A stretch of DNA of 64,000 nucleotides, from the IMG/VR virus record IMGVR_UViG_3300007511_000007, positions 1 to 64,000 of that record. The stretch is one strand, 5' to 3'. Below the pieces are notes generated by a model. The model searched no databases and had not been told where the DNA came from. It saw nothing but the letters and a program-made list of their open reading frames with translations. This document shows positions 16,805 through 39,282 of this stretch, piece after piece; within the stretch, counting starts at the first letter, position 1; every line of letters begins with the position of its first letter. Position numbers and translations under genes: made by a program. The DNA comes from a virus.

Positions 16805-17128
16805 ATGAACGCAGTGATTATTTCAGTGCCACTTAAGAAGAGGGAACTCGTAAAGAGCCGACACTCCCAGAAGCGGATGTCCCAACGAGGCATTCGCAAG
16901 AACGCAATTGAAGCCGTCATGAAGTTCGGACGGATCGTCAGGGGAAAGGGATGTCATCGCTTCTTTCTCGGCCACAAAGAAGTCAAACAGTGGGCAAGCA
17001 AAGGAGTAGACCTCAAAGCCCACCTCAACCTGCATGTCGTAACGGATGTGCATGAGACAACGGTTCTCACCGTCTACAGGGATTCGAGAACCAGATTGCC
17101 CGGATACTCAAGGAATGCTTCTCAGTGA
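16805..17128 (+). CDS. DUF4258-like small basic protein
   Basis: 107 residues. SRHSQKRMSQRGIRKNAIE, then a segment with GCHRFFLG, and VTDVHETTVLTVYRD follow the DUF4258 layout (H-S-x-x-R-x-x-x-R-G-I at the start and a final strand pair), a RelE/BrnT-like fold. Whether it acts as a toxin is unknown, and no antitoxin partner is visible. The start follows TTGGAGG. It is a single-gene unit with its own promoter. Confidence 0.6.
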   Translation: MNAVIISVPLKKRELVKSRHSQKRMSQRGIRKNAIEAVMKFGRIVRGKGCHRFFLGHKEVKQWASKGVDLKAHLNLHVVTDVHETTVLTVYRDSRTRLPGYSRNASQ

Positions 17129-17138
17129 ACCCAACATC

Positions 17139-17163
17139 GTGGGGGAAACTTGAATCCCCCCAC
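17139..17163 (+). terminator. Hairpin after the DUF4258-like gene
   Basis: GTGGGGG (17139-17145) pairs with CCCCCAC (17157-17163) around an 11-base loop, ten bases after the stop codon. There is no T run, so termination is plausible but not assured. Confidence 0.4.
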
Positions 17164-17196
17164 TGACCAGAGACCCGAATCCCAACCTTGTTCATC

Positions 17197-17382
17197 TTAG
17201 ACGACCTCAAATTGGAAACAATTTACAGTGCCCATCACCGTGCTCCCATCTTTGAAGTAGCCGAAGGAAAAATGGGAGACACCCGGTGGGCTGTCTTCTG
17301 TTCTGATCCTGTGCGCCCTCAAAGTCAAAGACATCTTGCCATTTTCAAAACCCGAACGGTCAATCGAAACCTCAATAGTCAT
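17197..17382 (-). CDS. Small unknown protein
   Basis: 61 residues beginning MTIEVSIDRSGFENGKMSL, predicted all-beta. An AGGAGGTG site lies four bases before the ATG at 17382, which fixes the start. A TATAGT element lies about 20 bases upstream. Function unknown. Confidence 0.55.
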   Translation of the reverse strand: MTIEVSIDRSGFENGKMSLTLRAHRIRTEDSPPGVSHFSFGYFKDGSTVMGTVNCFQFEVV

Positions 17383-17401
17383 TGGACACCTCCTATTCAA
17401 A

Positions 17402-17650
17402 CTATACCACAGACCCCGGCCTCAATGCCAGGAGCAACTTCTGTCCTCGGGGAGAACTCACGGGAACGAATGCGGCCTCAGATTCGCAGTGGGGGCAGAC
17501 CTTGTACTTTGAAGAAAGCCGCCAAACCGAGTAGAGCAACCCCGGTAGAAGAAAGAATAGCCACAGCACCAATTCGATGAAACAACCCCCTCGGGTTACG
17601 GTCTTGCGACGCCCTATGTACCCGCAATTGGGACAGATCGATTCTTTCAT
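17402..17650 (-). CDS. Zinc-ribbon membrane protein
   Basis: 82 residues: CPNCGY at the N-terminus, one hydrophobic segment (FIELVLWLFFLLPGLLYSVW), then CPHCES. The two CxxC knuckles flank the membrane segment, a layout of small zinc-ribbon membrane proteins. Relatives with similar hydrophobic cores include superinfection-immunity-type proteins, but that role is a guess here. GAGGTG precedes the ATG. Confidence 0.6.
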   Translation of the reverse strand: MKESICPNCGYIGRRKTVTRGGCFIELVLWLFFLLPGLLYSVWRLSSKYKVCPHCESEAAFVPVSSPRGQKLLLALRPGSVV

Positions 17651-18963
17651 CGAACACCTCTTCGCTGTTTCTTTTTCCCAAACGGCTTTGGTTTCTCGTC
17701 TTTTGTGTGAGTAGTTTCCGTGAATTCAAGAAAATCCTCGTCATCGAGTATCCGCTTGATCCTAGATTCTTGGACTTCAGGCTCAATTGCCCGCTCCTTC
17801 AGCCATGCTTTGTGGCCCCAATCGGGTTGAACTGCATTCCCCCGGTGTCTACGACTTTCAGAAAGTGCCGCAAGCTGTCCAAACTCCTGTGCGTGGATAT
17901 CAGCATATTCTTTGCTCACAATGAAATCTGCGCTATCTAAAGATCTGTTCCCGTTCTGTGTAAAGTTTCTTGATCCTTTCCACACAGCTTCCCAAACAAC
18001 TCTTTCCTTCACATCCGCTTCCTCCACGGCAAAAAAAAGATCATTTCGGGCAGCGACCTCGACATCAAGCTGCTCCCACCATTTGTCACAAACTGCCCAC
18101 GATGGCTTGGGCGGCACAATACGAGAGTCTCTCAATACAATTCTCTTCGCACCCCCGACAGTTCTGACTTTCCCAAAAACGAGGAACTTATGGTGCAGGA
18201 TCGGTGCCGCATAGTCGGTATTCAGTTCGGTGTCACCAAAACAACGGGCACCCCCAAAAGAATCTTCAGGGTCCAGCCCCGGCCAATTCTCCCAAAAACT
18301 TCGGGGCATATCCCGCAGCAAAAGTGAGTTATCCTCTAAACCCCAGACGCCCGGAGACGATTCCAACGCATCTGTCTTGGCCACAACAAAAGCGCAACCC
18401 CTCTTCAATTCTTGCATCGCCCCCAAGAGACTGCTCAACGTGAACCAAGCCATACACCCAAGGACAGCGTCATATTGTCTGAGATACCCCTTCAAAGGGG
18501 TCTCCAAATCTCGGAAATGAGAAGTAACAGAAACGGTGTGGGGGATGCCACCATAACATTGGAGGAGCTTTTCATCCATTCGGGACAAAGAGTTCAAACT
18601 GAACTCTTTCCCGATCTTCCTTCTGAGGTGCCTTCGATACTCTTCAAGAGCATCTTCCCGTTCGATCTCGGGATGTACCTTCACCCAACCTTTTATGAAC
18701 TCAGCTTCCCCAAATCGTAAGCCATCGGCGGTCAACACTCCAGACAACACCGCAACCTTATGAGCATGGAAATTCCGCTTCTCCTCGGGGGTCTTGAAAA
18801 ATACCTCTACCTCCGAATCCCAATAGGAACGTCGACAGTATCTGTCCTGCCATCCCCGAACTAAGACAATGCTGCCACCATCATCGGGAACATCAACCTG
18901 AAGAGTTGTAGCCCCTTCCATAAAAAGACCGGAAATACCAGAGGGTGTCTTTTCAACTTTCAT
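17647..18963 (-). CDS. Phospholipase D-like (single HKD-type motif) protein
   Basis: 438 residues. APILHHKFLVFGK is the H-x-K half of a PLD motif with Gly in place of the usual Asp, and WKGSRNFTQNGNRSLDS is the GSxNxT segment that follows it in PLD nucleases. Only one copy is seen, so activity would need a dimer. The first 130 residues are unrecognised and the C-terminus is very basic (KPFGKKKQRRGVR). Overlaps the upstream gene's end by 11 bases and is followed immediately by the zinc-ribbon gene. Confidence 0.68.
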   Translation of the reverse strand: MKVEKTPSGISGLFMEGATTLQVDVPDDGGSIVLVRGWQDRYCRRSYWDSEVEVFFKTPEEKRNFHAHKVAVLSGVLTADGLRFGEAEFIKGWVKVHPEIEREDALEEYRRHLRRKIGKEFSLNSLSRMDEKLLQCYGGIPHTVSVTSHFRDLETPLKGYLRQYDAVLGCMAWFTLSSLLGAMQELKRGCAFVVAKTDALESSPGVWGLEDNSLLLRDMPRSFWENWPGLDPEDSFGGARCFGDTELNTDYAAPILHHKFLVFGKVRTVGGAKRIVLRDSRIVPPKPSWAVCDKWWEQLDVEVAARNDLFFAVEEADVKERVVWEAVWKGSRNFTQNGNRSLDSADFIVSKEYADIHAQEFGQLAALSESRRHRGNAVQPDWGHKAWLKERAIEPEVQESRIKRILDDEDFLEFTETTHTKDEKPKPFGKKKQRRGVR

Positions 18964-19231
18964 GAGTCACTCTGGCAGCCAACTCCCTCAACTTCGGGAG
19001 TGACCCGATCACCACATGGGAAAAGTTCACACAAGGAGAAACAGTGGCCCAAACCAACCTGACTCCACTTTTCTCAAGCTCTTTCAGGCAACATGCCACA
19101 ACGCCGTCGGAGTGTCGCCCTCCAAGTTTCCAGTCCTGAATCAGTTGGTAAGACACACTAACATTCTTATTGAGTTGGAACTCACGATGCAAAAAACGAA
19201 GCAGATCTCGGGTCTTTTCCGAACAAAACAT
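18953..19231 (-). CDS. Small unknown protein
   Basis: 92 residues opening MFCSEKTRDLLRFLHREFQL, with two predicted helices and a possible winged-helix outline (DGVVACCLKELEKSGVRLVW). GAGAGGGG lies upstream. It is co-transcribed with the PLD-like gene. No family recognised. Confidence 0.5.
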   Translation of the reverse strand: MFCSEKTRDLLRFLHREFQLNKNVSVSYQLIQDWKLGGRHSDGVVACCLKELEKSGVRLVWATVSPCVNFSHVVIGSLPKLRELAARVTHES

Positions 19232-19327
19232 AGTTTACCCCTCTCGCAAACCACTCATCTGAACTACTCCATTTCACCAAAAAACCCCGAAAGCCTCAAC
19301 TTTGCCCCCTCGGGATCAGCCTTCAAT

Positions 19328-20818
19328 TCACTCCTCAAGAAGCATGTCAATAACATTTGGCCCCTTTACCATCTTCCGATATCCACCACGACGCCATTTG
19401 GCAACATACTTTTTGATCCTTTCAGCAACTCGTTTGGGATCGTGTTTGATCTCACTCTCCCATAAGACCAAGCAAGAGATGCCTTGATCCTCATAAAACC
19501 TTTCTACCTCTCTCCTATGGGTAAAACGATCCTTCCCAGTCTTTTGTGGGCCATGCCAGTAGTCACCAAAGATTTCGATCAGAGCACTCGTCCTGAGATC
19601 GTTCAACTTGGTACCATCCCGATAGGCGTCCAACTGTGCCCGTGTCAAGATTATAAAATCTGGATTCCGATTTTGGGAGGTCTCTTCGCTTCCCACCCAA
19701 TAAGACCCATCTCCAGCATACACCACAAATTCTGTGGACAATCCATTTACCTGTTGCTCAAGTTTATTTGGGCTAGTGTGAGTTTGATTTGACCACATGC
19801 TTTGAGGGGGAAAGGGGACACCATACTTTTGTGTCCAAACTTTCTTGATCTTCCTCTTGATCTCCTCACTTTTCGACGGATTATCCACTCCATACTTCTC
19901 CAACCATGTCTTTTGCGCTTTCGCCCGCACCTCTGGGCATTGCTGAGAATGTCTCCCCCCATGATTGGCCAGGTTTGTCTCGTAGGCTTGCTGTTGAATT
20001 GTAGGATCAAGTAATGGGTTCTCTACACCATACTTCTCCATGAATACAGCAGCCAACCTCTCCCGCACTTCCTCAGACTTCATAGGATGCACAACACCCC
20101 ACTTCTCCAAACACACAGCTTTGAACTTTTCTTTAAACTCGTCTGTCTCGAAGTAATGCTCCGATCCATACCTCTCCCTGTTTGTCTCCCTTGTCTTCTC
20201 TTGAATCTCAGGGACTCTCTGAGGACATGTCTCCCCATACTTAGACTCCATACCCTCCTGTGCCCTTTTTGTACCCTCCTGACCCCCCAAAGGGTTCTCA
20301 TGCCCATACTTCACCAGATTCGTAGCTGCACGTTTTCTCTGTACCTCAGGGGCAATCGCAGCATGGTTTACGCCGTACTTCTCTTTGGCAGTCTCTCGGG
20401 ACTTCTCCTTGACCCCCTCATCCTGAAAAACGTTATCCACACCATATCTCTTCTTGACCGTCTTCTTGCGTTTCTCAAGCGTTGTTGAAAGCCTCACGGG
20501 GGCACCCGGAAACTTCATCTTGTACTCGCCCTCAGTCAAACCATGAACCTTCTTCAAATGATCCATCATACGAGTAAACCGGAAATCCCACCCATATTGA
20601 AGACAGACTTTGCATTGGACGTAATCCTGCCCCTCAACCAGCCTCTCTCCAAATAGATGTTTCTTTGAATACTTGTCCCACTTGAAGTATGGCAGTGGAT
20701 CACCAAACTGCTCTTTCCACCCCTCACACTCAGATGTGTGTTCATGAATCTTCTTTGGTGCCATCCTGTGACCACACGCAGGACAACTGATACTGCCACG
20801 ATCTTCATTTCTTGGCAT
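19328..20818 (-). CDS. Free-standing homing endonuclease with tandem YGV repeats and Vsr-like nuclease domain
   Basis: 496 residues. The N-terminus has a zinc finger (SCPACGHRMA) and a second Cys pair (QCKVCLQYGW) with a following HLKKVHGLT. The middle holds about eight roughly 30-residue repeats with the core KYGVDNP (KKRYGVDNVF, KEKYGVNHAA, EKYGVENPLL), a DNA-recognition repeat of phage homing endonucleases. The C-terminus (ALIEIFGDYWHG, CLVLWESEIKHDP) matches the Vsr/EDxHD nuclease fold. The start at 20818 is chosen for GGGAGGAG seven bases upstream. It probably invaded this site as a mobile gene. Confidence 0.75.
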   Translation of the reverse strand: MPRNEDRGSISCPACGHRMAPKKIHEHTSECEGWKEQFGDPLPYFKWDKYSKKHLFGERLVEGQDYVQCKVCLQYGWDFRFTRMMDHLKKVHGLTEGEYKMKFPGAPVRLSTTLEKRKKTVKKRYGVDNVFQDEGVKEKSRETAKEKYGVNHAAIAPEVQRKRAATNLVKYGHENPLGGQEGTKRAQEGMESKYGETCPQRVPEIQEKTRETNRERYGSEHYFETDEFKEKFKAVCLEKWGVVHPMKSEEVRERLAAVFMEKYGVENPLLDPTIQQQAYETNLANHGGRHSQQCPEVRAKAQKTWLEKYGVDNPSKSEEIKRKIKKVWTQKYGVPFPPQSMWSNQTHTSPNKLEQQVNGLSTEFVVYAGDGSYWVGSEETSQNRNPDFIILTRAQLDAYRDGTKLNDLRTSALIEIFGDYWHGPQKTGKDRFTHRREVERFYEDQGISCLVLWESEIKHDPKRVAERIKKYVAKWRRGGYRKMVKGPNVIDMLLEE

Positions 20819-20832
20819 GAGCAACTCCTCCC

Positions 20833-20850
20833 ATGCGGGAACTCCCGCAT
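20833..20850 (-). promoter_or_regulatory. Hairpin next to the ribosome site of the homing endonuclease gene
   Basis: A perfect eight-base stem (ATGCGGGA / TCCCGCAT) with a two-base loop lies directly before the GGGAGGAG ribosome site. Hairpins at this position limit translation of some T4 homing endonucleases, so a similar role is possible. Confidence 0.45.
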
Positions 20851-20952
20851 GAAACATGCTACCCAAGCGTATCTAGGTTGTCAAGAAAGAAATGACAAGA
20901 GAGGCGAAAGCTCGGAAAACCCTAATGATAACAGACACATCGGAGGGAAACC

Positions 20953-21591
20953 TTAGAGAAAATTCCGGGGTGAGAGGACGCCCCGGCCCACATTTGCACC
21001 AAAAGCCGATCTAATTCCTACCCCATATTTGGGCTGACGCAATCCACGGATATATTTGACGGTCATCATCTTGGTTTCAGTGGCTTTCTCGAATTGCGTC
21101 TCGGCATTCTGCTTGAGCGACTCGTACTTGGAAGACTTCTCGATGTCCAATGAAACCCCACCAATCGAGTATGAGTTGTGCGCCAAGATCCCATTGGCAA
21201 GAAAGAAGTTCTCGGGGCCGGGAACCGACAGGTCAAAGGTAAACTCCTCAGGGTCAACATCCTGCACACGGGTCACGAGAGGAGCTACGATTTGGTCCTC
21301 AACCTGCGCTATGATGGCCGAACCACATTCAAGCCCCCCTGAAAGGACAGGAACGAGCTTTCTCCCTTCACTGGTGAACAAGCTATGGTCTTCTGTACAA
21401 ACGACGCTCTGGGACTCCCCAACGAGGCTCACCGTCACTTCCACCATTCGTTTCTGGGGGGTATGGTGACGCATGATGTCGGAAACCGAGTGCAGAGAAA
21501 CCTCTCCTGTTTCCCTATCGGCTGCTTTGACCCTGAGTTGGCCCGCAAGAAACGCTTTCTTGATCTCGGCTCGTGTCTGACTATCCAACAT
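20953..21591 (-). CDS. C-half of split-intein protein: intein-C (139 aa) plus virion-protein C-extein (73 aa)
   Basis: 212 residues from an ATG with GGGAGG eight bases upstream. Residues 1-139 are the C-terminal part of an intein: block B as VCTEDHSLF, block F as FDLSVPGPENFFLANG and the end ILAHN followed by Ser+1. Residues 140-212 (SYSIGGVSLDIEKSSKYESL onward) are the C-extein, rich in basic residues and ending GRGVLSPRNFL, like a phage structural or connector protein. It pairs with the 22564-23334 product. The start overlaps the end of the intervening endonuclease gene by 11 bases. Confidence 0.85.
   Translation of the reverse strand: MLDSQTRAEIKKAFLAGQLRVKAADRETGEVSLHSVSDIMRHHTPQKRMVEVTVSLVGESQSVVCTEDHSLFTSEGRKLVPVLSGGLECGSAIIAQVEDQIVAPLVTRVQDVDPEEFTFDLSVPGPENFFLANGILAHNSYSIGGVSLDIEKSSKYESLKQNAETQFEKATETKMMTVKYIRGLRQPKYGVGIRSAFGANVGRGVLSPRNFL
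21175..21591 (-). other. Split intein, C-terminal fragment
   Basis: 139 residues carrying nearly all of the splicing fold (blocks B, F and G) but no first residue. The segment KAADRETGEVSLHSVSDIM resembles the strand that normally follows block A. The last residues are His-Asn, then Ser+1 of the extein. Confidence 0.82.
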
Positions 21592-22567
21592 TGCAAAACC
21601 TCCCACGATCCTCTAAATCCAAAACGGCTTTTCGGATTCGCTTCAAACAGCTTTCGGGATCTTGTCTGATTTCATGTTCCCAAAAGGCGAGCAATGTCCA
21701 CCCTCGGTTTCTCAAATAGGTTGCCTTGCTCTTATCGGTTGTGAGCGTGCCTTTCGGCCCCGTCAATTTACATTCAGGGCAACTGTGCCAATAGCACCCG
21801 TTGATCTCTACCGATAACTTAAGCTCGGGGATCGCCTCATCTATTGAGTAGTACCCAACCTCATGTTCCGTCTCGAATCCCACCAACCCGAACTCAATCA
21901 TTCTCTCCTTGAACTCAAGATGCAACTTTGTTCTCTTCTTCTTGATGTGCCTGCGAGCCTGCTTCGCCATTTCTAAAGACAACTCTTTATTGTCCCGATG
22001 CCAGCCCTCGACAGCTTCTCTGAGATCCCCATTCTCCCATCTCTCTTTGGACTGTTGGCGACGCAACTCTCGATACTCTGGGGTCTTGTTGAGGGCCGTC
22101 AGATGCGCCGCAGCTTGTTCTCGATAGGGGCCAGCCTGCATACGTTTCGACGCTTCTGAGATCTGCTGTCGTGTGATTTCTCCCACCGGGGTCTGGAACC
22201 TCTTTTTGAGCTTCTCAGACTGTGCTTCCTTTTGCCCCTCGGACTTCGCTTTCCGCCCCCTCGTAAACGCACTCATCAACGGGGCCTCGGGGAACTTCCC
22301 CACGTAGTCTTTCAGAGACACCCCCGAACACGCCTTGAGATGCCTTGGTGAAATCATGTTCTGGAAAGCCCCACACTCTTTGCACAGGATGTAGTGCTCC
22401 CCTTCGATCAACCTTTCTTGTAGGTGCTCATAGGAGAAGAAAATCGTAGGACGTTTGCCTTCTTTACGGGAGTGCTCACACACTATTCCTGATTCGACCA
22501 AGGCCGAAAAGGTCTTGGCGTTGAACCCATAGCGCAGGAGCACTTGTCGTTTCGTCAACAGAGTCAC
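21581..22567 (-). CDS. Free-standing Vsr-like homing endonuclease between the intein halves
   Basis: 328 residues from GTG at 22567, overlapping the stop of the upstream gene. It has an N-terminal helix-turn-helix-like segment, a Cys pair (LCKECGAFQN), a SLKDYVGKFPEAP segment echoing the 19328-20818 product, and a C-terminal nuclease domain: LSVEINGCYWHSCPEC, then GWTLLAFWEHEIRQDP, the Vsr/EDxHD pattern. Such genes occur between split-intein halves in fractured phage genes, where they promote spread of the whole arrangement. Confidence 0.82.
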   Translation of the reverse strand: MTLLTKRQVLLRYGFNAKTFSALVESGIVCEHSRKEGKRPTIFFSYEHLQERLIEGEHYILCKECGAFQNMISPRHLKACSGVSLKDYVGKFPEAPLMSAFTRGRKAKSEGQKEAQSEKLKKRFQTPVGEITRQQISEASKRMQAGPYREQAAAHLTALNKTPEYRELRRQQSKERWENGDLREAVEGWHRDNKELSLEMAKQARRHIKKKRTKLHLEFKERMIEFGLVGFETEHEVGYYSIDEAIPELKLSVEINGCYWHSCPECKLTGPKGTLTTDKSKATYLRNRGWTLLAFWEHEIRQDPESCLKRIRKAVLDLEDRGRFCNVG

Positions 22568-23334
22568 TCTTTACACACCTTGTAAAGCTCCTCAAAGGGG
22601 AGCGTCACTTCTTCTCCATTCGGGAGAGTTACAGTAATCTCTTGATCCCCTCTCACGCTGAACTCGTCCGAAACCCAATTGCTCGCCAGGGCAAAGCAAG
22701 CGTGTACGATTCCACCCCAGATAATCGCGGTTCTCCAAACGGGTTTCATGGAAACGAGCCGGTCGATGGTATTGACTGCTTCCGTCTCGGGCGGGAACAT
22801 ATTGAACCAGTCCAAGGCTCGTTCCAGATATTCCAGAAGTTCTTCATCTCGCCATATCTGGCCGAACACCTGATTGTACTGGCCAATGGTACCTTCATGC
22901 TCTGGTGGTCTGAAATGGTAGAAGGAATCTGGGTCCTGGTCTCGAAGGAGCATTCTGATCTTTGCAATCATGGAAACTTCGGCTGCTGTATACGTTATTG
23001 AGGTAACTGTTCCGGCGGCGACTACGGCGAATTCTTGAACAACTTGTTGATAGGGTGATGAGGTGAGTTCTTTGAATGTCCAACGGATTCGATATGTTCC
23101 TACTGTAGCACCGGAAGGGATCATCAGGGAGCCGTAGTATTCTCCCACAGTGGGATTAATCGGGGTTCTTTGTGCCGCCCCGATCAATACTTCAGACTCG
23201 GGGGGGCCTGGATCTACGTAGTAGAGCGCAAAATAAATCTCGGCGGCATTTGTGGCGGCACCTTGGGTGTTTGTCAGGAATATGTCCAGGTCACCGCGCC
23301 CGAGCGTTTCGCCTTGTGTGAATGCAATAGCCAT
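22564..23334 (-). CDS. N-half of split virion protein plus intein-N with Ser1
   Basis: 256 residues. Residues 1-225 are the N-extein, a virion-type protein with a beta-rich N-terminal part and a helical second part (DEELLEYLERALDWFNMFPP, GGIVHACFALASNWVSDEF). Residues 226-256 are a short intein-N: SVRGDQEITVTLPNGEEVTL then FEELYKVCKE, i.e. block A with Ser as residue 1. After splicing, WVSDEF would join SYSIGGVSLD of the 20953-21591 product. The combined protein of about 298 residues is probably a head-tail connector or neck protein, judged from position only. Confidence 0.82.
   Translation of the reverse strand: MAIAFTQGETLGRGDLDIFLTNTQGAATNAAEIYFALYYVDPGPPESEVLIGAAQRTPINPTVGEYYGSLMIPSGATVGTYRIRWTFKELTSSPYQQVVQEFAVVAAGTVTSITYTAAEVSMIAKIRMLLRDQDPDSFYHFRPPEHEGTIGQYNQVFGQIWRDEELLEYLERALDWFNMFPPETEAVNTIDRLVSMKPVWRTAIIWGGIVHACFALASNWVSDEFSVRGDQEITVTLPNGEEVTLPFEELYKVCKE
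22567..22659 (-). other. Split intein, N-terminal fragment (31 aa, Ser1)
   Basis: Residues 226-256 of the N-half protein. GDQEITVTLPNG is the block A strand pair seen after the first residue of inteins, and the segment ends at TGA. Ser instead of Cys at position 1 and the very short N fragment are both uncommon. Confidence 0.78.
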
Positions 23335-23355
23335 GTGAGCTTCGGTACCTCCCTT

Positions 23356-23805
23356 CTAACCAATCAGAATCCGAGTATCTGTCGTCAGAACCACTACCGT
23401 GGCACTGATGGCATTTGCCACCCGCACCGTCATTACCCCCGACCCGGCGGGAGGTGTTTGACTCACTTCTCCAGCCGTAGTGGACAAATAGAGATCATTT
23501 CCAATGGTCAATGGGCCACCCCCGGTTACGATGGGAGTTACTTTTGATCCACGACCAGTGATTATTGCCGCAGTTTGGCCGGGAACTCCATTTGCGCCCA
23601 TGAATCCAATGAACCCATCCAGGTTATCGGCTGGGCCTGCCCCACACAGTGCAAACTCTAAGGAACCGCCATTATCTACGACTGCTACCGCGGCTCCAAG
23701 GAGAAGCGGCGGGGCTGCCGGAACAGTGATGTCGGAGTACAGTATTTTCGCAGAATCACTGCTGATACTTGATCCTGCTGCTGGCGGGTATGCAATCGGT
23801 GTCAT
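23356..23805 (-). CDS. Probable virion decoration or fibre protein
   Basis: 149 residues, Gly/Ala/Thr/Val rich and all-beta by pattern. GNDLYLSTTAGEVSQTPPAG and the end TVRVANAISATVVVLTTDTR resemble DUF2190-type capsid decoration proteins. No ribosome site is visible before the ATG; the codons just upstream are TAG AAA in the same frame as the previous gene. It ends in TAG, and the next gene follows in frame. Confidence 0.6.
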   Translation of the reverse strand: MTPIAYPPAAGSSISSDSAKILYSDITVPAAPPLLLGAAVAVVDNGGSLEFALCGAGPADNLDGFIGFMGANGVPGQTAAIITGRGSKVTPIVTGGGPLTIGNDLYLSTTAGEVSQTPPAGSGVMTVRVANAISATVVVLTTDTRILIG

Positions 23806-23808
23806 TTT

Positions 23809-24033
23809 CTAATGTACCATCGAACGACACGCTGCATCATACCGTTCTTCTGTCGAACCGGGGTAACTTGTCAACAATTCTTTTGCCGTTGGGTTTCCAT
23901 TCAGAGACTCCCCAGCAAAGACGAAGACCACCGTCTTCGTATCGTTCTCATCGATCTCGGTTCGAAGGAATTTGCCGCCTTTGTTCACCATGAAGCCAGC
24001 CATCCTGAAATCTGTAACTCGAACTTCTGCCAT
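23809..24033 (-). CDS. Small virion-region protein, DUF5659-like
   Basis: 74 residues: VTDFRMAGFMVNKGGKFL, then KTVVFVFAGESL and LTSYPGSTEERYD. The F-x-F strand after an acidic turn and the following helix resemble the 24415-24678 product, so the two may be related. AGGAG lies eight bases before the ATG. The TAG stop is one codon before the next gene in the same frame. Confidence 0.55.
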   Translation of the reverse strand: MAEVRVTDFRMAGFMVNKGGKFLRTEIDENDTKTVVFVFAGESLNGNPTAKELLTSYPGSTEERYDAACRSMVH

Positions 24034-24045
24034 CTGCGGACTCCT

Positions 24046-24411
24046 CTATCCCCCCTTTACGAACTGAGCGATCAAACCTGGATAACCCCCTCCCAACCCT
24101 CTATTCGATGAAATCAGCGTTAATTCTTGTTCGGCCCGACTCACCAACCCCGATCCAGGATCAGTCCCTTCCATTAATCCATAAAGAGCGTCACCATCCG
24201 TGAATGTGGTCGGGATGGTGTACGTGTATGTGTAACGACCTACCTCTGCGGGAACAGCCTCAACCAAAGCCGCTGAGACCAATGTCTGTTTTGCACCTGC
24301 ACCAGTGAAATTATAGATGAGGATCGCCGGGTTGTTCACAGCGATGGGTGTGTTTGTGGCATCCACAAACAGCACCGTGAAAGTAAATGGACTTCCAATA
24401 ACAGCTTCCAC
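24046..24411 (-). CDS. Ig-like beta-sandwich virion protein
   Basis: 121 residues from GTG, with strands typical of an Ig-like fold (GSPFTFTVLFVDATNTPI, VGRYTYTYTIPTTFTDGDAL). It is probably a head or tail surface component. Ends in TAG four codons before the next gene, in frame with it. Confidence 0.55.
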   Translation of the reverse strand: MEAVIGSPFTFTVLFVDATNTPIAVNNPAILIYNFTGAGAKQTLVSAALVEAVPAEVGRYTYTYTIPTTFTDGDALYGLMEGTDPGSGLVSRAEQELTLISSNRGLGGGYPGLIAQFVKGG

Positions 24412-24414
24412 TTC

Positions 24415-24678
24415 TTAAACCTCATCCATGTGAGTCAAAGTTTTCATATTCTTGATCTCTTCAGCGTAACCAAGAGCCACTACCTTACTCGTCCTATTGA
24501 AGTATTGGAGCTTGAGATTTTTGATTGCGTCAGAACGCTCAAAGACAAAGTAGACTCGTCGTCCTTCTCTATCGATATCGACAAGAGGAACGCCCGCCAG
24601 CTTCAGATAAGCGGCATAATACAAGTCCGTGGTTCGGTATGTGGAGTTTGGTTCTACATTCATCCGTTTCCTTTGCAT
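24415..24678 (-). CDS. DUF5659-like small protein
   Basis: 87 residues: TYRTTDLYYAAYLKLAGVPL, then RRVYFVFERS and a basic helix with EEIKNMKTL. This is the layout I associate with DUF5659: a helix, an F-x-F strand and a terminal helix. Function unknown. Stops with TAA one codon before the following GTG. Confidence 0.6.
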   Translation of the reverse strand: MQRKRMNVEPNSTYRTTDLYYAAYLKLAGVPLVDIDREGRRVYFVFERSDAIKNLKLQYFNRTSKVVALGYAEEIKNMKTLTHMDEV

Positions 24679-24751
24679 CTGTCAATCCATCCTGGCTCTC
24701 AAATAAACCAGGAGGTCTTCACCTATAAAGCCTGCGCTATAGAGCAAAAAA

Positions 24752-25840
24752 TCAGATTCTCAAAAGGTTTCCATCAGAATCGTAAACAGTGATCGCCTCA
24801 AACATTCCATTCGCTGGAATTTCAGACAAACTATGGGCGTACCAACCCCCGGTTGAAGGGCCTCCAACCAGGGGACTAACAGCTTGAAAAACAGACGAAG
24901 ACACCAAATTACTGACCGTGTAACCCCCATCAAAAGCCGTGGTCGCATTATCAAAGATTGCCACGGTATCCCCGACGGCAAGGAAATGGCCGTTGGTGAC
25001 GGTCACCGTCATTGTTCCTGCAGCCCCTGTCATTGAAGCTACCGGGAGTCGTGTCGCATACGTGCGTGCGGTACCTCCTCTCCCATATGTGAATTGAGGA
25101 TTCTGGTACACAAACATGGTGTCTGCGATTCTGCCCGCCAGCGATACCGTGGGGAATCCCAATTCGGATCTCGCTGAACTGGAAACATAAAGAGGGCGGG
25201 CATTTTTGAAAGCAGGGGACTGTGGGAAAACAACATTTGTCGGTGGGGCTTGAGTCAAAAAACCCGAAGCAAGGTTCCCCGTGAGAACACTAACTGCAGG
25301 ATGGGCTTCAGCCGACCAGTTATTTCCGGCCATATCAGCGAGGGTCGCCCCGAACCCTACCCGATAAACTTCACCCGAAAGAATTCGCATGATGTCGTCC
25401 ACGGTAGCGATACTGCCGTTCGTGGTGAGGTTCGTCAGGTTTGGTAAAGGAGGTGGACCAAAGAGATTGGCTGTGTTGTTGATCACCCCCACAATGTCCG
25501 CTTCGGTCATCTCAGCCCGATTGAGGATTCGGGCATACAAGGTAAGGGCAATATGATATGCTTGCCGAGCAAACATCATCTGATCCCCAACACAACAAAT
25601 ATGATCTAGGAGATACCCCGCCAGACCATCTTCATCCTGACCCATAACCGTTTTTGCCCCGGTGAAACCGAGGTTTGGTTCTTGCGTGAGTTGAGGAAAG
25701 TTATTGACGTTCACATACCCGGATTGCCCTGAGCCTTCCATGCCCGGATTGACAAGAGAAGAGTTGGGTATAAGACTACCGAGAGGAATAGCCCCGGCTG
25801 GAAGATCATTACGGACAAGGACTGGGTAGATACGACGCAT
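24752..25840 (-). CDS. Virion protein paralogue A of a tandem trio
   Basis: 362 residues. The N-terminus RNDLPAGAIPLGSLIPNSSL and C-terminus ITVYDSDGNLLRI are shared with the next two upstream genes. The middle is Ala/Gly/Thr rich and contains AHPAVSVLTGNLASGFLTQ, matched closely by paralogue B. Probably a tail tube, sheath-like or head surface protein; no family recognised. Confidence 0.65.
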   Translation of the reverse strand: MRRIYPVLVRNDLPAGAIPLGSLIPNSSLVNPGMEGSGQSGYVNVNNFPQLTQEPNLGFTGAKTVMGQDEDGLAGYLLDHICCVGDQMMFARQAYHIALTLYARILNRAEMTEADIVGVINNTANLFGPPPLPNLTNLTTNGSIATVDDIMRILSGEVYRVGFGATLADMAGNNWSAEAHPAVSVLTGNLASGFLTQAPPTNVVFPQSPAFKNARPLYVSSSARSELGFPTVSLAGRIADTMFVYQNPQFTYGRGGTARTYATRLPVASMTGAAGTMTVTVTNGHFLAVGDTVAIFDNATTAFDGGYTVSNLVSSSVFQAVSPLVGGPSTGGWYAHSLSEIPANGMFEAITVYDSDGNLLRI

Positions 25841-25872
25841 AGCTTCACCCCCCTTTTACGAGAGGAGGCGTA

Positions 25873-27156
25873 CTACAGGACGTTGCCTTCGCTGTCGTAG
25901 ACCATGATGCCACGGAACTGACCGGGGGCAACTGCCGCCGCCGCTGTAGCAATGTCCGTGTGGTTTGCATTGGCCACTGTAGCGATACCATTGGCGGTTT
26001 CCAGAGAACAAGTTGCTCCCGCTGCCACAAAACCTACACCGGGAGCGTTGGTAGCAATGCCAAGCTGGAAACTCGTGGCCGCAACTGAACCCGCCACGGT
26101 GTAAACGCCGTTGGTCGCAGTGGTATGGGCTGCCCCGGCTGCGGTCAACGCACCATTCAGCCGTACCGTGTCACCGTTGATGAACGGATGGTTGGCACAG
26201 GTAAATGTGGCATTGGCGGCAACATCGGAAACGCCCATCGTGTAGATGAAGTTGTTGGAATGTGCGGTTCCACGAGTCGTACTCGCACCACCATTGGCTA
26301 CGCCGTAGGTTGCTGCTGTCACACCGTCGGGCATGATGGATGCATTGTAGGCGAACGGTACCGTGGCTGCCGGGGTGCGTTTGAACACCGAAAGATGCCC
26401 ACCACCAGCCGAAGCCCGAATCGAACCGCTCAGGTACAAAGCACGCATGTTCACGAAGTTCACGGAAGCGGGCCACGTCTGAGTTGCCACAGCAGCGTTG
26501 GGCTGCGTCAAGAACCCTGAAGCGAGGGTACCCGTGACGTTCCCAACTGCGGGGTGTGCGCCACCGGCATACGATCCGGCACCATCACCGAAAATCGCCA
26601 GAGCCTGAACTTCCCAGACTTCGCCCGCCAGAATACGAATGACTTCCTCGACCAATTGCGCTGCGGGCTTATTCGCACCGCTTGCATTGGATCTCAGACC
26701 CGTCGCAGTCGGAAGGGCCGGGTTCCAAGCAATCATACCCGGAGCGGAGCCGTCCATTGCTCCCACGGAGTTGATGGCTGTTACGATGTCCGCATGAGCC
26801 AGCGGAGCACCTGCGACAACCATGACGGCCAGACGAGCGGTTATCGCCCGTGCCTGTACCGGAGTCATAATCGCATCCGCACCACCAGCATCACACTGGA
26901 TATGGTCCATCAGCCAACCGGGGAGTCCCCGAGTGACTGTCGGGATCACATCAGCCACAAGAGTACCAGGTAGCTCGATGTTCATCGGGGGAATCCAAGT
27001 GGTGCCCCGATAGTGCCCATGGTCAATGTAACCTGTTTGACCTGCTCCGCTCATTCCCGGATTCGCTTGTGACGTGTTGGGTGCCACATCCGTAAACTGA
27101 ACCAGTCCATCGGGCAGATCGTTCCTGCAAGGAATGATAAACGCTCTGTTCGCCAT
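25873..27156 (-). CDS. Virion protein paralogue B of a tandem trio
   Basis: 427 residues with CRNDLPDGLVQFTDVAPNTS at the start, AHPAVGNVTGTLASGFLTQ in the middle and IMVYDSEGNVL at the end. Compared with paralogue A it has a longer Ala/Thr-rich beta domain. No ribosomal or enzymatic motif. Ends in TAG. Its relatedness to A and C points to gene duplication. Confidence 0.65.
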   Translation of the reverse strand: MANRAFIIPCRNDLPDGLVQFTDVAPNTSQANPGMSGAGQTGYIDHGHYRGTTWIPPMNIELPGTLVADVIPTVTRGLPGWLMDHIQCDAGGADAIMTPVQARAITARLAVMVVAGAPLAHADIVTAINSVGAMDGSAPGMIAWNPALPTATGLRSNASGANKPAAQLVEEVIRILAGEVWEVQALAIFGDGAGSYAGGAHPAVGNVTGTLASGFLTQPNAAVATQTWPASVNFVNMRALYLSGSIRASAGGGHLSVFKRTPAATVPFAYNASIMPDGVTAATYGVANGGASTTRGTAHSNNFIYTMGVSDVAANATFTCANHPFINGDTVRLNGALTAAGAAHTTATNGVYTVAGSVAATSFQLGIATNAPGVGFVAAGATCSLETANGIATVANANHTDIATAAAAVAPGQFRGIMVYDSEGNVL

Positions 27157-27229
27157 GTCTAAATCCTCCGTTTACTTTTCAACCCCCAAATGAGGGCAAC
27201 AAATGAATCTGCCCGAAAGCAGTTCGATC

Positions 27230-28846
27230 CTAGTACAAGGTTCCGTCGTCGTTGTATGTCGTCACGACTCTCGACGTTGCTGCTACCAATGCCGTATTCG
27301 GAGAGCCGCCCTGATAGCCGTACTTGGGAATCGGGTTCCCGGCTCCGTCAAGGGCATTCCCGCTCGCCCCGGCGTTTCCTACCATGAAAGAAATGCCGTG
27401 CAAACGCTGCGGGGTCTGCAAGAAGGAGATCACACCCTCGCCGTCAGAAGAACCGAGGGAACCGCCCGCATAGGTGGCCCGGATACCTTTGATGTCCTTG
27501 GTGTATGCGAAAGCTCCTGCCCCAATTGTGGTGACGAAACCACCCAAGCGAGCCGCTTTGATCGCCGCCCCCTGAATTGCAGACCCCGAAGGAAGTCTGT
27601 ATCCGCGCCCGGCGAGAATCTGCATAAGCTCCGAATGAACTGCCGTGGAGAGTGTTCCCGCTGAATTGAGAATTTCTGTACCAGCTACGGTGGCTGCTGC
27701 CACAGCATTCACGGTTGCAACAGGATCATTGGCCGAAGCAACGGTGCCCCCCACTCCATAGGCAGGACCAGCATTGGCAATCGTGACTGTAAAAGTTGTC
27801 GCAGTCGGTGTGCTCCCTACTACTTGTGCGCCATTCACGCCCGCCACGGAATGCCCTGCAATCACAACATTCTGACCCACTGTCAGACCATGCGCAGTTG
27901 CTGTCGTCAACACTGTGTCACCAGCAACTGATCCCGTTGTGATCGAAACCGCAGTCCGATTGGTGAACTCACTGGACACGGTGCCCGTGGCAGTTCCAGC
28001 AACACCAGTGGTATTGTTGACGCCAACACTGAAAGTCGTCGCATTGATCCGAGTGGCAATATGATCGCCATTCAAGGGGGCAAAACTATGCCCCACGATG
28101 TTGACCGTCTCACCAGTGAGGATGCCATGTGCTGTCGGAGCCGTAGAAATCACCGCAGGAGAAGCCGCAGTTGAACTCACGAGAGCGAACGACAATTTGT
28201 TGATCAATGCCTGGGCAATCGTTACAGCGTTTGCTGCGGGAAGGGCTGCAATGCCTGCAGCCGCCAAAGTTGCACCTGACAATGTGATGTCAACATCAGT
28301 CGCAACCATTGTTATGGCATTACCCGCAGCACCATAAGCAATAGCGGTTACTGTAACCACACCCAAGGCACTCTCTGCTGTAACTCCAATCCCCAAAGCC
28401 TGCGCTCCTGTCACCGCTGTCGGATCATTGATCGCCAAAGCGATTGAGGCAGCCGTTGCAGTCGCATTACCGCCTCCCGCTAGGTATTGACCAATCGCCG
28501 GGTTGGGGGCCGCATTTGCCGTCAGTGTTACTCCATTGATAACAATAGTTTGCGGTGCCGCACTAAAACCAGTGTTCGATGTCACAGTACCAGCGGCCCG
28601 CACGGTACCTCCAGCCACCACATTATCGATCAAGTAGGCGGCGAGGCCGTCGTACTGAGCGTTCGTCGTGATCGGACCAGCACCCGTAGTCATGACCACA
28701 TCGTTCTGTGGTTCATTCACATACTTGGTCTGCCCCGGAGGATCAACCGATGCGTTGGCCTGCGACGTGTTGGGTGAAAGGTCCAAAATCTGAAGTACCC
28801 CATCAGGGATGTCGGTTCTTGCTAGACAAATGAATGGCATGGTCAA
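27230..28846 (-). CDS. Virion protein paralogue C with large inserted beta domain
   Basis: 538 residues. The N-terminus ARTDIPDGVLQILDLSPNTS and the end VVTTYNDDGTLY match the trio. Between them is an extra region of about 200 residues of Ala/Thr/Val repeats (AHGILTGETVNIVGHSFAPL, AHGLTVGQNVVIAGHSVAGV) that looks like two copies of a small beta unit. Such insertions are common in surface-exposed phage proteins. The first gene of the trio in transcription order. Confidence 0.65.
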   Translation of the reverse strand: MTMPFICLARTDIPDGVLQILDLSPNTSQANASVDPPGQTKYVNEPQNDVVMTTGAGPITTNAQYDGLAAYLIDNVVAGGTVRAAGTVTSNTGFSAAPQTIVINGVTLTANAAPNPAIGQYLAGGGNATATAASIALAINDPTAVTGAQALGIGVTAESALGVVTVTAIAYGAAGNAITMVATDVDITLSGATLAAAGIAALPAANAVTIAQALINKLSFALVSSTAASPAVISTAPTAHGILTGETVNIVGHSFAPLNGDHIATRINATTFSVGVNNTTGVAGTATGTVSSEFTNRTAVSITTGSVAGDTVLTTATAHGLTVGQNVVIAGHSVAGVNGAQVVGSTPTATTFTVTIANAGPAYGVGGTVASANDPVATVNAVAAATVAGTEILNSAGTLSTAVHSELMQILAGRGYRLPSGSAIQGAAIKAARLGGFVTTIGAGAFAYTKDIKGIRATYAGGSLGSSDGEGVISFLQTPQRLHGISFMVGNAGASGNALDGAGNPIPKYGYQGGSPNTALVAATSRVVTTYNDDGTLY

Positions 28847-36591: not shown

Positions 36592-39282
36592 TTACCGTTC
36601 GCCAACACAGTCAGAACAATACCGTCTCGTGTTATTTTGGCTCTGGTCTAAGAATGCTCCCCCACACCTTCGACATTTCTTCGACCTGAGTTTTTGACGG
36701 CAATCTAAACAAACTGTACGGCGATCTACGGCTTTGAACTGCTCACCGCACTCAGAACATGTCCAGACCCCAATTTCTTGCTCGCTGCGGAATTGCGACA
36801 CATCGGTAATCTTGCCAGATCGAAACATCTTTTCCCGCCGCCGATGCTCAGGACAACAAAACCGCATTGAGTTTTGCTTCGAGTCATCAACGAAAGCCTC
36901 CCCACAATGTCGATACTGACAAGTCTTCCGACGTTTTGATAGCTCCCGCTCCTCCTTACACTCAGGACAATACTTGAAGCTCCCCTTTAGACTCGTTTGC
37001 CATTCCTTGTCACAACTCTGGCATATGAAATCCCGCACCCCTGCTAAAGGATTCGTTGCCCGACGCTGCTTCCTTTTCTCTTTCGCTCTCTTTGCGTCGA
37101 GTGCCTTTCTGCAATCCACACAATACAACGTCCTCGAAGATGCCCCCACAAGCTCCAGACCACAAACGGTACAAGTAATCTTCTTACTTGAACAGGCGGG
37201 ACAAATCATCTTCTCCCCCAAAGGAATGACCTTGCCACAGCTTGTACAATGACTGAATTGCACGCCTTGCTCACCAATCGTGACCGTCTTTGGCTGCCCT
37301 ACCCGAGGCCAACACAGAACTTTCTCATGGTTCTCTCGGTCTTTGAACTTCGGCATCGCATATCTTACAACCTCTCCCTTCCCCACTGGGAGCCGCTCAC
37401 AGATGTCAATAGTATCTTGAATCAAGGGGTACACCACACCCCCTATCTTGAAATCGTCCACGTTCAAGACAACCCACCCACCCGGATTTAGAGCGAGCAC
37501 AGATTTCCGCACCACCTCTTCCCAGAACTCTTTCAGCCAACTCTCGTATGTGGAATATCGATTTCCAGCCAACCTCTCGGAATCCCCATAAATCTCTCGT
37601 TTCCAGTATGGTGGGGATGTCAAGACCATATCAACACAAGGGAACTCAAAGTCCTCAGATGTCACATTATGCAGTTGAATCCGATCTTTGGCCCCCTGGA
37701 CATAGGAACCAATCCAATCGGCCATGCGGTGCAATCTCGTGAACGTTTCATTCTGTGGCTCGCATCCGATATATCTCGGATACGCACTCGACAGAACAAC
37801 TCCCATCATTCTGCCGCCATACCCGGCGCAGGGATCAAAAACGGTGCCACCTGGCGGGCAGAATTTGTCCACCAGTACCTTTGCTGCAGAGGGTCTGAAA
37901 TTATACACTCCTGAGTAAGTCAAAAACCTCAAAGCCCCCCGCAGTTGAGACGGATTAGGGACTCTCCCCATACCCAACAAAGCACGTATCGCTTTCCTTA
38001 GCGACACGTCATCGCTGAAAATCTGCATTGGGCTTCTTTTTGACTGGAAAGAGCGAGCTTCCCAAATGTGAGGCATCAGAGCATGACACGAACTCTGCCC
38101 AACACGTCTCTCTTTCAGGACACCACCCTGTAGAACTTGGTCAACTTCTAAACGATGAATTGCTTGTAGCTCCTGCGGTTTGATAATCGAATGGGGGAAC
38201 CCCTCTCTTCGCCAAAACTCAAAGATCTCCTGCTCGATGCGCTCCCGGTCCGACAACGAAACGCTGCCCCACCTCTTGGCCTCTCGCCGTAACTCAATGG
38301 GAATATGTTTCTCCCCTTTTGTATTGATTGGAACCTTTGGGACAACACCTGGAGGCCAAAACTTGCGGGGGATTTTATACAAAACACTGGAACTGGCATA
38401 CGGGGCAATCAAGGAAAAGAACAGTGCCGAAGAGATCGCCCTGATCCCCATAATCTTGCAAGAGGTCTGTGCCGAAGTTCCCATTAAGTACGTTTTAATC
38501 CCGAACTGCTCCCCCACAACCCTCACAATCTCTTCTGCTTCCTGAAGGGTCGTGTCCCCTAACGCAAAAGAGGGGAGACCAGAATCCAGATGACCATCGT
38601 CAAAGTACCAATACGCCAATGACTGCACAGTCAAGCCCCTCAAAATTACTGTTGGGTACTTTCTAGTGCCCTTTGGATAAAAGACCGCACGCAATTCCCG
38701 CAACCACTCATGTTGAACTGTCCGGAACCCAAAGCCATACTGCATCTCTCCCGAGTCTTCTGATTCAGTCTCTTCGTAGAACAGGGGCCGCGCAATTGTG
38801 CTCAACATGTTGTGGATATGCCGCAAATAATCGAATTGACTGTGGGAATGAACAACCTTCAGCACACCACGCTCAAAAAGATGGCCATCCCCCAATAAGG
38901 TTCCAATGATGACCTCCTTCTGATCCTGTGTGAGCAAATCTTTCTTTGTAGCCCGCTCTGACTTCGAGATTGCTACAATGCCCCACTTCTTACGGAGTCT
39001 GGCTATGGCAGGCTTTTTAACTCCATACCGAGCAGCAATTTGCCTGTCCCCCATCTGTTGATAAAGACTTTTCAAAAGGACTGGAGTTAATTCGCCCAAA
39101 GTAGGCAACCCCTTTCTTTGACTCAGGTCACGTCTCTCTCGGATCGTAGTTGTCGGGATACCAAGCTTCTTTCTGTGGTAAGCAACCCCCTCACCGGACA
39201 TCCCGAACATCTCACCTATCTGGGAATCCGTGTGCTGTGTATACAAGACCTCTAATTCCCCCTTGCTAAATTTCTTGCCCAT
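36592..39282 (-). CDS. LAGLIDADG homing endonuclease - DNA methyltransferase - zinc-ribbon fusion
   Basis: 896 residues. Residues 5-105 hold two helix-turn-helix-like units (SQIGEMFGMSGEGVAYHRKK, RQIAARYGVKKPAIARLRKK). Residues 124-300 are a LAGLIDADG nuclease (IIGTLLGDGHLF, LAYWYFDDGHLD). Residues 400-665 are a DNA amino-methyltransferase with the SAM site GGTVFDPCAGYGGRMMG and the catalytic LTSPPYWKREIYG. Residues 678-896 are a chain of at least five zinc ribbons (HCTSCGK, CTVCGLE, ICQSCDKE, TCSECGEQ, KCRRCGGAF). It lies between a structural-type gene and the capsid gene and is probably mobile. Confidence 0.85.
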   Translation of the reverse strand: MGKKFSKGELEVLYTQHTDSQIGEMFGMSGEGVAYHRKKLGIPTTTIRERRDLSQRKGLPTLGELTPVLLKSLYQQMGDRQIAARYGVKKPAIARLRKKWGIVAISKSERATKKDLLTQDQKEVIIGTLLGDGHLFERGVLKVVHSHSQFDYLRHIHNMLSTIARPLFYEETESEDSGEMQYGFGFRTVQHEWLRELRAVFYPKGTRKYPTVILRGLTVQSLAYWYFDDGHLDSGLPSFALGDTTLQEAEEIVRVVGEQFGIKTYLMGTSAQTSCKIMGIRAISSALFFSLIAPYASSSVLYKIPRKFWPPGVVPKVPINTKGEKHIPIELRREAKRWGSVSLSDRERIEQEIFEFWRREGFPHSIIKPQELQAIHRLEVDQVLQGGVLKERRVGQSSCHALMPHIWEARSFQSKRSPMQIFSDDVSLRKAIRALLGMGRVPNPSQLRGALRFLTYSGVYNFRPSAAKVLVDKFCPPGGTVFDPCAGYGGRMMGVVLSSAYPRYIGCEPQNETFTRLHRMADWIGSYVQGAKDRIQLHNVTSEDFEFPCVDMVLTSPPYWKREIYGDSERLAGNRYSTYESWLKEFWEEVVRKSVLALNPGGWVVLNVDDFKIGGVVYPLIQDTIDICERLPVGKGEVVRYAMPKFKDRENHEKVLCWPRVGQPKTVTIGEQGVQFSHCTSCGKVIPLGEKMICPACSSKKITCTVCGLELVGASSRTLYCVDCRKALDAKRAKEKRKQRRATNPLAGVRDFICQSCDKEWQTSLKGSFKYCPECKEERELSKRRKTCQYRHCGEAFVDDSKQNSMRFCCPEHRRREKMFRSGKITDVSQFRSEQEIGVWTCSECGEQFKAVDRRTVCLDCRQKLRSKKCRRCGGAFLDQSQNNTRRYCSDCVGER

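What the first reader, a model, noticed from the sequence alone, without database searches (positions are those of the whole stretch)
20953..23334. Fractured virion gene: split intein with Ser1 and a 31-residue N fragment, homing endonuclease in between
Seen: the 22564-23334 product ends with a block A-like segment starting at Ser226. A Vsr-like endonuclease gene follows with overlapping ends. The 20953-21591 product then begins with the rest of an intein ending LAHN|S and continues into an extein. Removing the intein parts joins WVSDEF to SYSIGG. Known: fractured genes with split inteins and free-standing Vsr-like endonucleases have been described from phage metagenomes. Unusual here: Ser as first residue and a very short N fragment.
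Basis: partly seen in the sequence, partly recalled or inferred. Interest (0 to 1): 0.88.

Follow-up and report, generated by a model that had tools for sequence, protein, structure and literature searches.

The report
Phage connector gene broken by split intein
A phage gene for a probable head-tail connector protein is cut in two by a selfish DNA-cutting gene, and the two half-proteins almost certainly join themselves through a split intein; relatives show the same gene cut at a second place, sometimes at both, and in at least one lineage stitched back together.

Summary
The N gene (22564-23334, minus strand) encodes 225 extein residues plus a 31-residue intein-N starting at Ser226. An EDxHD/Vsr-like nuclease gene overlaps both neighbours. 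The C gene (20953-21591) encodes a 139-residue intein-C ending in HN, then 73 extein residues. The only change at the joint is Asp in place of Ser at +1 (75 of 79).

Ser1 with a short N fragment is not new (GOS-TerL, PolB16 OarG). Ser1/Ser+1 chemistry combined with a split after the first helix appears undescribed: a March 2026 paper names PolB16 as the only natural cysteine-less atypically split intein, and it is split elsewhere.

Relatives add more. The gene has two intein sites, each with its own nuclease family. Six contigs are split at both, giving three-piece genes. One contiguous intein keeps a fossil ribosome-binding site and start codons from a split ancestor. Intein gain also goes with a second extein change, at +10, that the model pairs with +1 across a hairpin.

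Trans-splicing and cleavage are inferred; neither was assayed.

The parts
22660..23334 (-). N-extein, residues 1-225 of the connector-like protein (Ig-like domain plus helical domain)
   Evidence: uninterrupted homologues up to 70% identical
22567..22659 (-). Intein-N, 31 aa, Ser1; block A plus the first helix
   Evidence: Ser1 in 24/24 distinct site-2 inteins
22564..22567 (-). 4-base overlap: stop codon of the N gene with the GTG start of the nuclease gene
21581..22567 (-). Free-standing homing endonuclease (putative), zinc-finger-like N part and EDxHD/Vsr-DUF559 nuclease C part
   Evidence: PF04480 E 3.5e-8, vsr E 2.4e-6, PDB 3r3p mobile intron protein E 7e-5; relatives only at this site
21599..21604 (-). 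Shine-Dalgarno-like GGGAGG ahead of the C gene
   Evidence: AGGAG-type motifs at the same place in many split relatives
21175..21591 (-). Intein-C, 139 aa, with NX His42, TEDH block B (His69), His138-Asn139
20956..21174 (-). C-extein, 73 aa, beginning Ser+1 (SYSIGGVSLD...)

Best explanation
The gene for a head-tail connector-like virion protein is fractured. Its two parts are translated separately from one operon. The 31-residue intein-N and the 139-residue intein-C associate into a HINT fold. Ser1, helped by the NX and block B histidines, attacks the N junction; Ser+1 takes over the N-extein; Asn139 cyclises; and the exteins are joined as ...DEF-SYSIGG.... This is class 1 oxyester chemistry. 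The gene between the halves encodes an EDxHD/Vsr-like homing endonuclease that cuts intein-free alleles at this point, so that repair copies the whole cassette in, including the adapted +1 and +10 codons. Shown by sequence: the anatomy, the exact empty sites, conserved catalytic residues, repeated gain or loss, and the site-restricted nuclease family. Inferred: splicing in trans, nuclease cleavage, homing and co-conversion.
For: Exact empty alleles in 79 contigs, occupied in 27. Intein C-terminal domain over cut-off. Contiguous homologue predicted with pLDDT 94 and matching solved inteins (Pho RadA, TM 0.79). Ser1, NX His, block B His and HN invariant in 24/24 distinct site-2 inteins. +1 is Ser/Thr in 27/27 occupied alleles and Asp in 75/79 empty ones. 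The split is evolutionarily stable and under purifying selection, dN/dS 0.06-0.23 for IntC and 0.07-0.23 for the nuclease. All 13 loci found by the nuclease search lie in this gene at this site. Site-2 status changes at least 16 times on the extein tree.
Against: No expression or splicing data. The extein function rests on weak family matches (phrog_17327 in 7 of 37 relatives, best E 6e-6; 28% identity to a protein annotated head-tail connector). The nuclease is only distantly similar to characterised enzymes, and its start codon (GTG or a near TTG) is uncertain. The window's intein-N alone is too short to be matched by a family model.
Confidence: 0.93

Rival explanations
1. The halves no longer splice: the intein is a relic and the two proteins work as separate subunits.
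For: Breakage of a phage gene by a homing endonuclease with both parts working unligated is known (the phage ribonucleotide reductase case cited in PMC10448857). No splicing assay exists here.
Against: All catalytic residues are intact in the window and in 24/24 distinct relatives. IntC is under purifying selection. The +1 residue is always a nucleophile when an intein is present. Forms that lost the nuclease keep an intact intein (L023, L146, L010, L070).
Confidence: 0.04
2. The nuclease gene lies in a self-splicing RNA intron inside a contiguous intein, so a single protein is made after RNA splicing.
For: Group I introns with EDxHD nucleases are known (I-Bth0305I, PMC3943268), and it is the best-scoring structure for the nuclease.
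Against: No Rfam match in 17000-27000 at E up to 1. The nuclease ORF overlaps both neighbours, leaving no room for a ribozyme. The C gene has its own ribosome-binding site and start, and so do many split relatives. L023 stays split with no nuclease and only 94 bases between its two intein parts.
Confidence: 0.02
3. The +10 Asp travels with the intein only by co-conversion and does nothing for the protein.
For: It lies 27 bases from the insertion point. Most +1 codons in occupied alleles are TCN, as if inherited from one donor lineage.
Against: Columns beyond +10 carry no comparable signal. The pairing holds in 10 of 10 independent comparisons and also in the four intein-free alleles with Ser+1, all of which have Asp+10. 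The model places the two residues opposite each other in a hairpin, although at low confidence. Columns +2 to +9 are nearly invariant, so a short co-converted tract cannot be excluded.
Confidence: 0.3

Closest known systems
Fractured genes (Dassa et al. 2009, NAR, doi 10.1093/nar/gkp095; not held here, known by citation and from memory)
   Same: Two gene halves, each ending or starting in a split-intein half, with a free-standing nuclease gene of the EDxHD/Vsr-like family between them, in phage metagenomes
   Different: The host gene is a connector-like virion gene. Intein-N is 31 aa instead of about 100. Relatives carry a second site with an unrelated nuclease family
GOS-TerL and AceL-TerL split inteins (PMC11766414, PMC13014065)
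   Same: Split after the first helix (called S2), short IntN (37 and 25 aa); GOS-TerL has Ser1
   Different: They are Cys-dependent (Cys+1, or Cys1 and Cys+1), in the terminase gene; here Ser1 and Ser/Thr+1 with the NX histidine
PolB16 OarG intein (PMC10189870)
   Same: Ser1/Ser+1, short IntN, NX-motif histidine preceded mostly by Arg or Lys
   Different: Split after strand 2 with a 15-aa IntN, in a DNA polymerase gene. PMC13014065 calls it the only known natural cysteine-less atypically split intein
I-Bth0305I, EDxHD homing endonuclease (PDB 3r3p; PMC3943268)
   Same: Vsr-like nuclease domain, best PDB match of the profile (E 7e-5)
   Different: Encoded in a group I intron in a phage recA gene (from memory) rather than between intein halves; overall similarity is weak
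AceL NrdHF (PMC7891396) and MIJ3 PolB (PMC6892783) fractured genes
   Same: Split intein with a free-standing nuclease in between
   Different: AceL NrdHF has a canonical split, class 3 chemistry and a GIY-YIG nuclease; the MIJ3 PolB intein has an HNH nuclease

Membership tests
Split intein, class 1 | Nucleophile at residue 1, block B TxxH, C-terminal HN, nucleophile at +1 | tested here: met
   Ser1, TEDH, HN, Ser+1 in the window; all invariant in 24/24 distinct site-2 inteins apart from Thr+1 in three contigs
Split intein, class 1 | HINT fold | tested here: met
   Tested on the contiguous homologue L010 (predicted, pLDDT 94; matches solved inteins), not on the window's two chains
Split intein, class 1 | Splicing in trans | not testable with these tools
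   Needs protein expression
Fractured gene | Intein halves on separate genes with a free-standing nuclease gene between them | tested here: met
   20 of 22 split site-2 relatives also hold the nuclease
Fractured gene | Uninterrupted alleles exist at the exact point | tested here: met
   79 of 106 contigs
Atypically split intein, site after helix 1 (TerL type) | IntN ends just after the first helix | tested here: met
   Window IntN is 31 aa; in the model the break falls in loop 31-36 between helices 22-30 and 37-43
Cysteine-independent intein | Ser/Thr at 1 and +1, NX histidine preceded by Arg or Lys | tested here: met
   RH in the window; His in 24/24 site-2 inteins (Arg or Lys before it in 20), absent in all 19 Cys1 site-1 inteins. 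The window intein does hold non-nucleophilic cysteines
EDxHD/Vsr-like homing endonuclease | Vsr-like nuclease domain | tested here: met
   vsr TIGR00632 E 2.4e-6, below its cut-off; DUF559 over cut-off; 3r3p and Vsr structures as best matches
EDxHD/Vsr-like homing endonuclease | Cleavage of the empty allele near the insertion point | not testable with these tools
   Only indirect: site-restricted family and repeated gain or loss
Head-tail connector | Recognised family match and virion location | tested here: inconclusive
   phrog_17327 in 7/37 relatives, best E 6e-6; annotated relative in Tunturi_5; no significant fold match

The most novel reading that the evidence does not exclude
This gene family is a natural record of split-intein evolution. 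Two inteins of different chemistry (Cys1 and Ser1), each invaded near the same N-terminal loop by an unrelated nuclease gene (TnsA-like and Vsr-like), occupy two sites of one virion gene. They can make it a three-piece gene assembled by two trans-splicing reactions, can fuse back to contiguous inteins, and spread together with a compensating extein mutation. The Ser1 site would be the first natural cysteine-independent inteins split after helix 1.
Probability: 0.6. Interest if true: 0.75.

Novelty: new variant of a known kind. Interest (0 to 1): 0.62.

Why it matters
Natural cysteine-independent split inteins with a short, synthesisable N fragment are scarce: PMC13014065 (2026) names one and says no other natural candidates were at hand to test. 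This locus and its relatives supply at least 15 distinct natural sequences. They also hold empty, contiguous, split-with-nuclease and split-without-nuclease states of the same site. That makes two questions testable: how inteins become split and whether this can be undone, and whether a homing intein must repair the protein it enters. PMC6801210 asks why nuclease domains within inteins always sit at one place; here two unrelated nuclease genes lie at another, but only as separate genes.

Tried and rejected
Group I intron or other known RNA: no Rfam match. Assembly artefact: the same break recurs in many independent contigs. Direct search with the window's intein-C alone found nothing; an alignment was needed. 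Fold search of the extein gave no reliable match; the model is low in confidence beyond the first domain. Sequence search of the extein and of the site-1 nuclease against the PDB: none. Polarity of the other contiguous forms (L010, L143, L149, L026, L064) could not be settled: no fossil start codon seen in them. The 2009 fractured-gene paper, the GOS-TerL paper and the I-Bth0305I paper are not held, so whether three-piece genes or TerL nucleases were already reported could not be checked.

Full report
What is there. On the minus strand three overlapping genes lie head to tail. The N gene encodes 225 residues that match the extein family, followed by SVRGDQEITVTLPNGEEVTLPFEELYKVCKE and a stop. 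The nuclease gene starts on that stop. The C gene starts inside the end of the nuclease gene, behind GGGAGG, and encodes 139 residues ending GILAHN, then SYSIGGVSLD and 63 further residues. The C part is an intein by TIGR01443 (E 7e-8, over its cut-off) and PF14890; N plus C passes the Pfam cut-off.

Searches fetched relatives of both exteins. One search showed that most run from DEF straight into the C-extein. After adding loci found through the intein and both nucleases, 106 distinct contigs could be scored. Site 2, the window's site, is empty in 79, split in 22 and contiguous in 5. Because some loci were fetched by searching for the intein or nuclease, these counts are not population frequencies. 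No empty allele contains the SVRGDQEITV segment.

Chemistry and fold. Twenty-four distinct site-2 inteins all have Ser1, the block B histidine and HN at the end. All have the histidine of motif NX, which PMC10189870 describes as specific to Ser1/Ser+1 (or Thr+1) inteins; it follows Arg or Lys in 20 of 24. The Cys1 inteins of site 1 have Ala, Asn, Ser or Val there in 19 of 19. A contiguous relative, L010, is predicted as an intein with mean pLDDT 94 and matches solved inteins. In it the break falls in loop 31-36, between the first and second helices. PMC13014065 lists the natural short-IntN splits as after strand 2 (VidaL, PolB16) or after helix 1 (AceL-TerL, GOS-TerL, both Cys-dependent), and calls PolB16 the only natural cysteine-less atypically split intein. 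Ser1/Ser+1 with the helix-1 split is therefore a combination I find no report of. One relative, L153, appears to be free of cysteine altogether if its IntC begins at the GTG codon; this was read by eye.

The nuclease. The C-terminal domain matches DUF559 and Vsr. Its profile finds 3r3p (a mobile intron protein, which I take to be I-Bth0305I) first in the PDB at E 7e-5. A scan with the profile returned 13 loci, all in this gene at this site. Close pairs show dN/dS of 0.07-0.23.

A second site. After residue 133 the same gene carries another intein in 23 of the 106 contigs: Cys1, +1 Ser or Cys, IntN of 29-37 aa, also split at the N-terminal end. Its nuclease is of another family: PF08722 TnsA-like, over cut-off in L070 at E 2e-8 and weaker in L022. 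Six contigs are split at both sites, so the gene is in three pieces. L022, L118 and L138 hold both nucleases. L023 has lost both and is still split at both sites. L073 keeps a 33-residue remnant of the first nuclease. L146 has a shortened first nuclease and no second.

Split back to contiguous. L070 has a contiguous intein at site 2; L068, L069 and L073 are split with a nuclease and about 86% identical to it at DNA level. The contiguous form is the split form joined at a shared AGGAG. Its frame reads ...KEE-RMMDN..., from AAAGAGGAGCGTATGATGGAT, which keeps the AGGAG and the tandem ATGATG start of the split C gene. L070 lies inside the L068/L073/L133 group (100/99 for the group; 96/77 and 94/76 within it). 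This is best read as deletion of the nuclease gene that fused the two halves again. L149 (contiguous) and L153 (split with nuclease) form a second close pair, support 100/100, with IntC about 95% identical, but without a fossil start, so the direction there is open. The four distinct contiguous site-2 inteins need four changes on the tree.

The host protein pays a price. Of about 298 extein columns, only two predict site-2 status well: +1 (Asp in empty, Ser/Thr in occupied) and +10 (Ser, Asn or Thr in empty, Asp or Glu in occupied). Their mutual information is 0.67 and 0.66 bits of a possible 0.85; the next column has 0.30. For site 1 only +1 does so (Asn to Ser or Cys, 0.76 of 0.76; next 0.20). 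On the extein tree built without these columns, site-2 status changes at least 16 times. In 10 of 10 independent supported pairs +1 and +10 change together (p 0.002), and in 12 of 12 for site-1 status and its +1. The model of an uninterrupted homologue puts +1 and +10 opposite each other in a two-strand hairpin, but at pLDDT near 42, so this is a hint only. I read it as compensation carried along by co-conversion during homing; hitchhiking of a short tract is not excluded.

The extein. It is a connector-like protein by weak evidence: phrog_17327 in 7 of 37 relatives, 28% identity to a protein annotated head-tail connector in Tunturiibacter phage Tunturi_5, and a place in a region with terminase and portal genes. 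The record is a 112,371-base viral contig.

Limits. No experiment was done. Ligation, cleavage and homing are inferred from sequence. The key 2009 and 2011 papers could not be read, so prior reports of three-piece genes cannot be ruled out.

Noticed in passing
19328-20866 (-): A second free-standing nuclease-like gene (DUF7487, phrog_3339 homing endonuclease) directly follows the C gene; weak nuclease matches also follow the gene in some relatives (L048, L080, L116).
   Followed up: partly
42678-45362 (-), 53570-56869 (-), and L112:4609-7998 (-): Three more intein-like regions in long open frames of the same contig: a head-protease-like gene, the portal gene, and a ribonucleotide reductase gene with an HNH domain.
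   Followed up: partly
36592-39282 (-): One 896-aa frame with LAGLIDADG endonuclease and DNA methyltransferase matches; may be another intein or a fusion.
   Followed up: no
24752-28846 (-): Three neighbouring genes with similar N-termini (NDLPDG/NDLPAG...NTSQANPGM) look like tandem paralogues of unknown function.
   Followed up: no
L175:3651-4585: In a contig binned as an Altiarchaeales archaeon, the site-2 intein is followed by space for only the nuclease half of the endonuclease (matches start at about residue 180).
   Followed up: no
L125:1333-1629, L157:2629-2937 and others: A diverged copy of the first (Ig-like) extein domain lies upstream of the gene in several relatives.
   Followed up: no
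L077, L096, L100, L162 at site 2: Intein-free alleles that nevertheless have Ser+1 and Asp+10: either alleles that lost the intein or alleles ready to receive it.
   Followed up: partly
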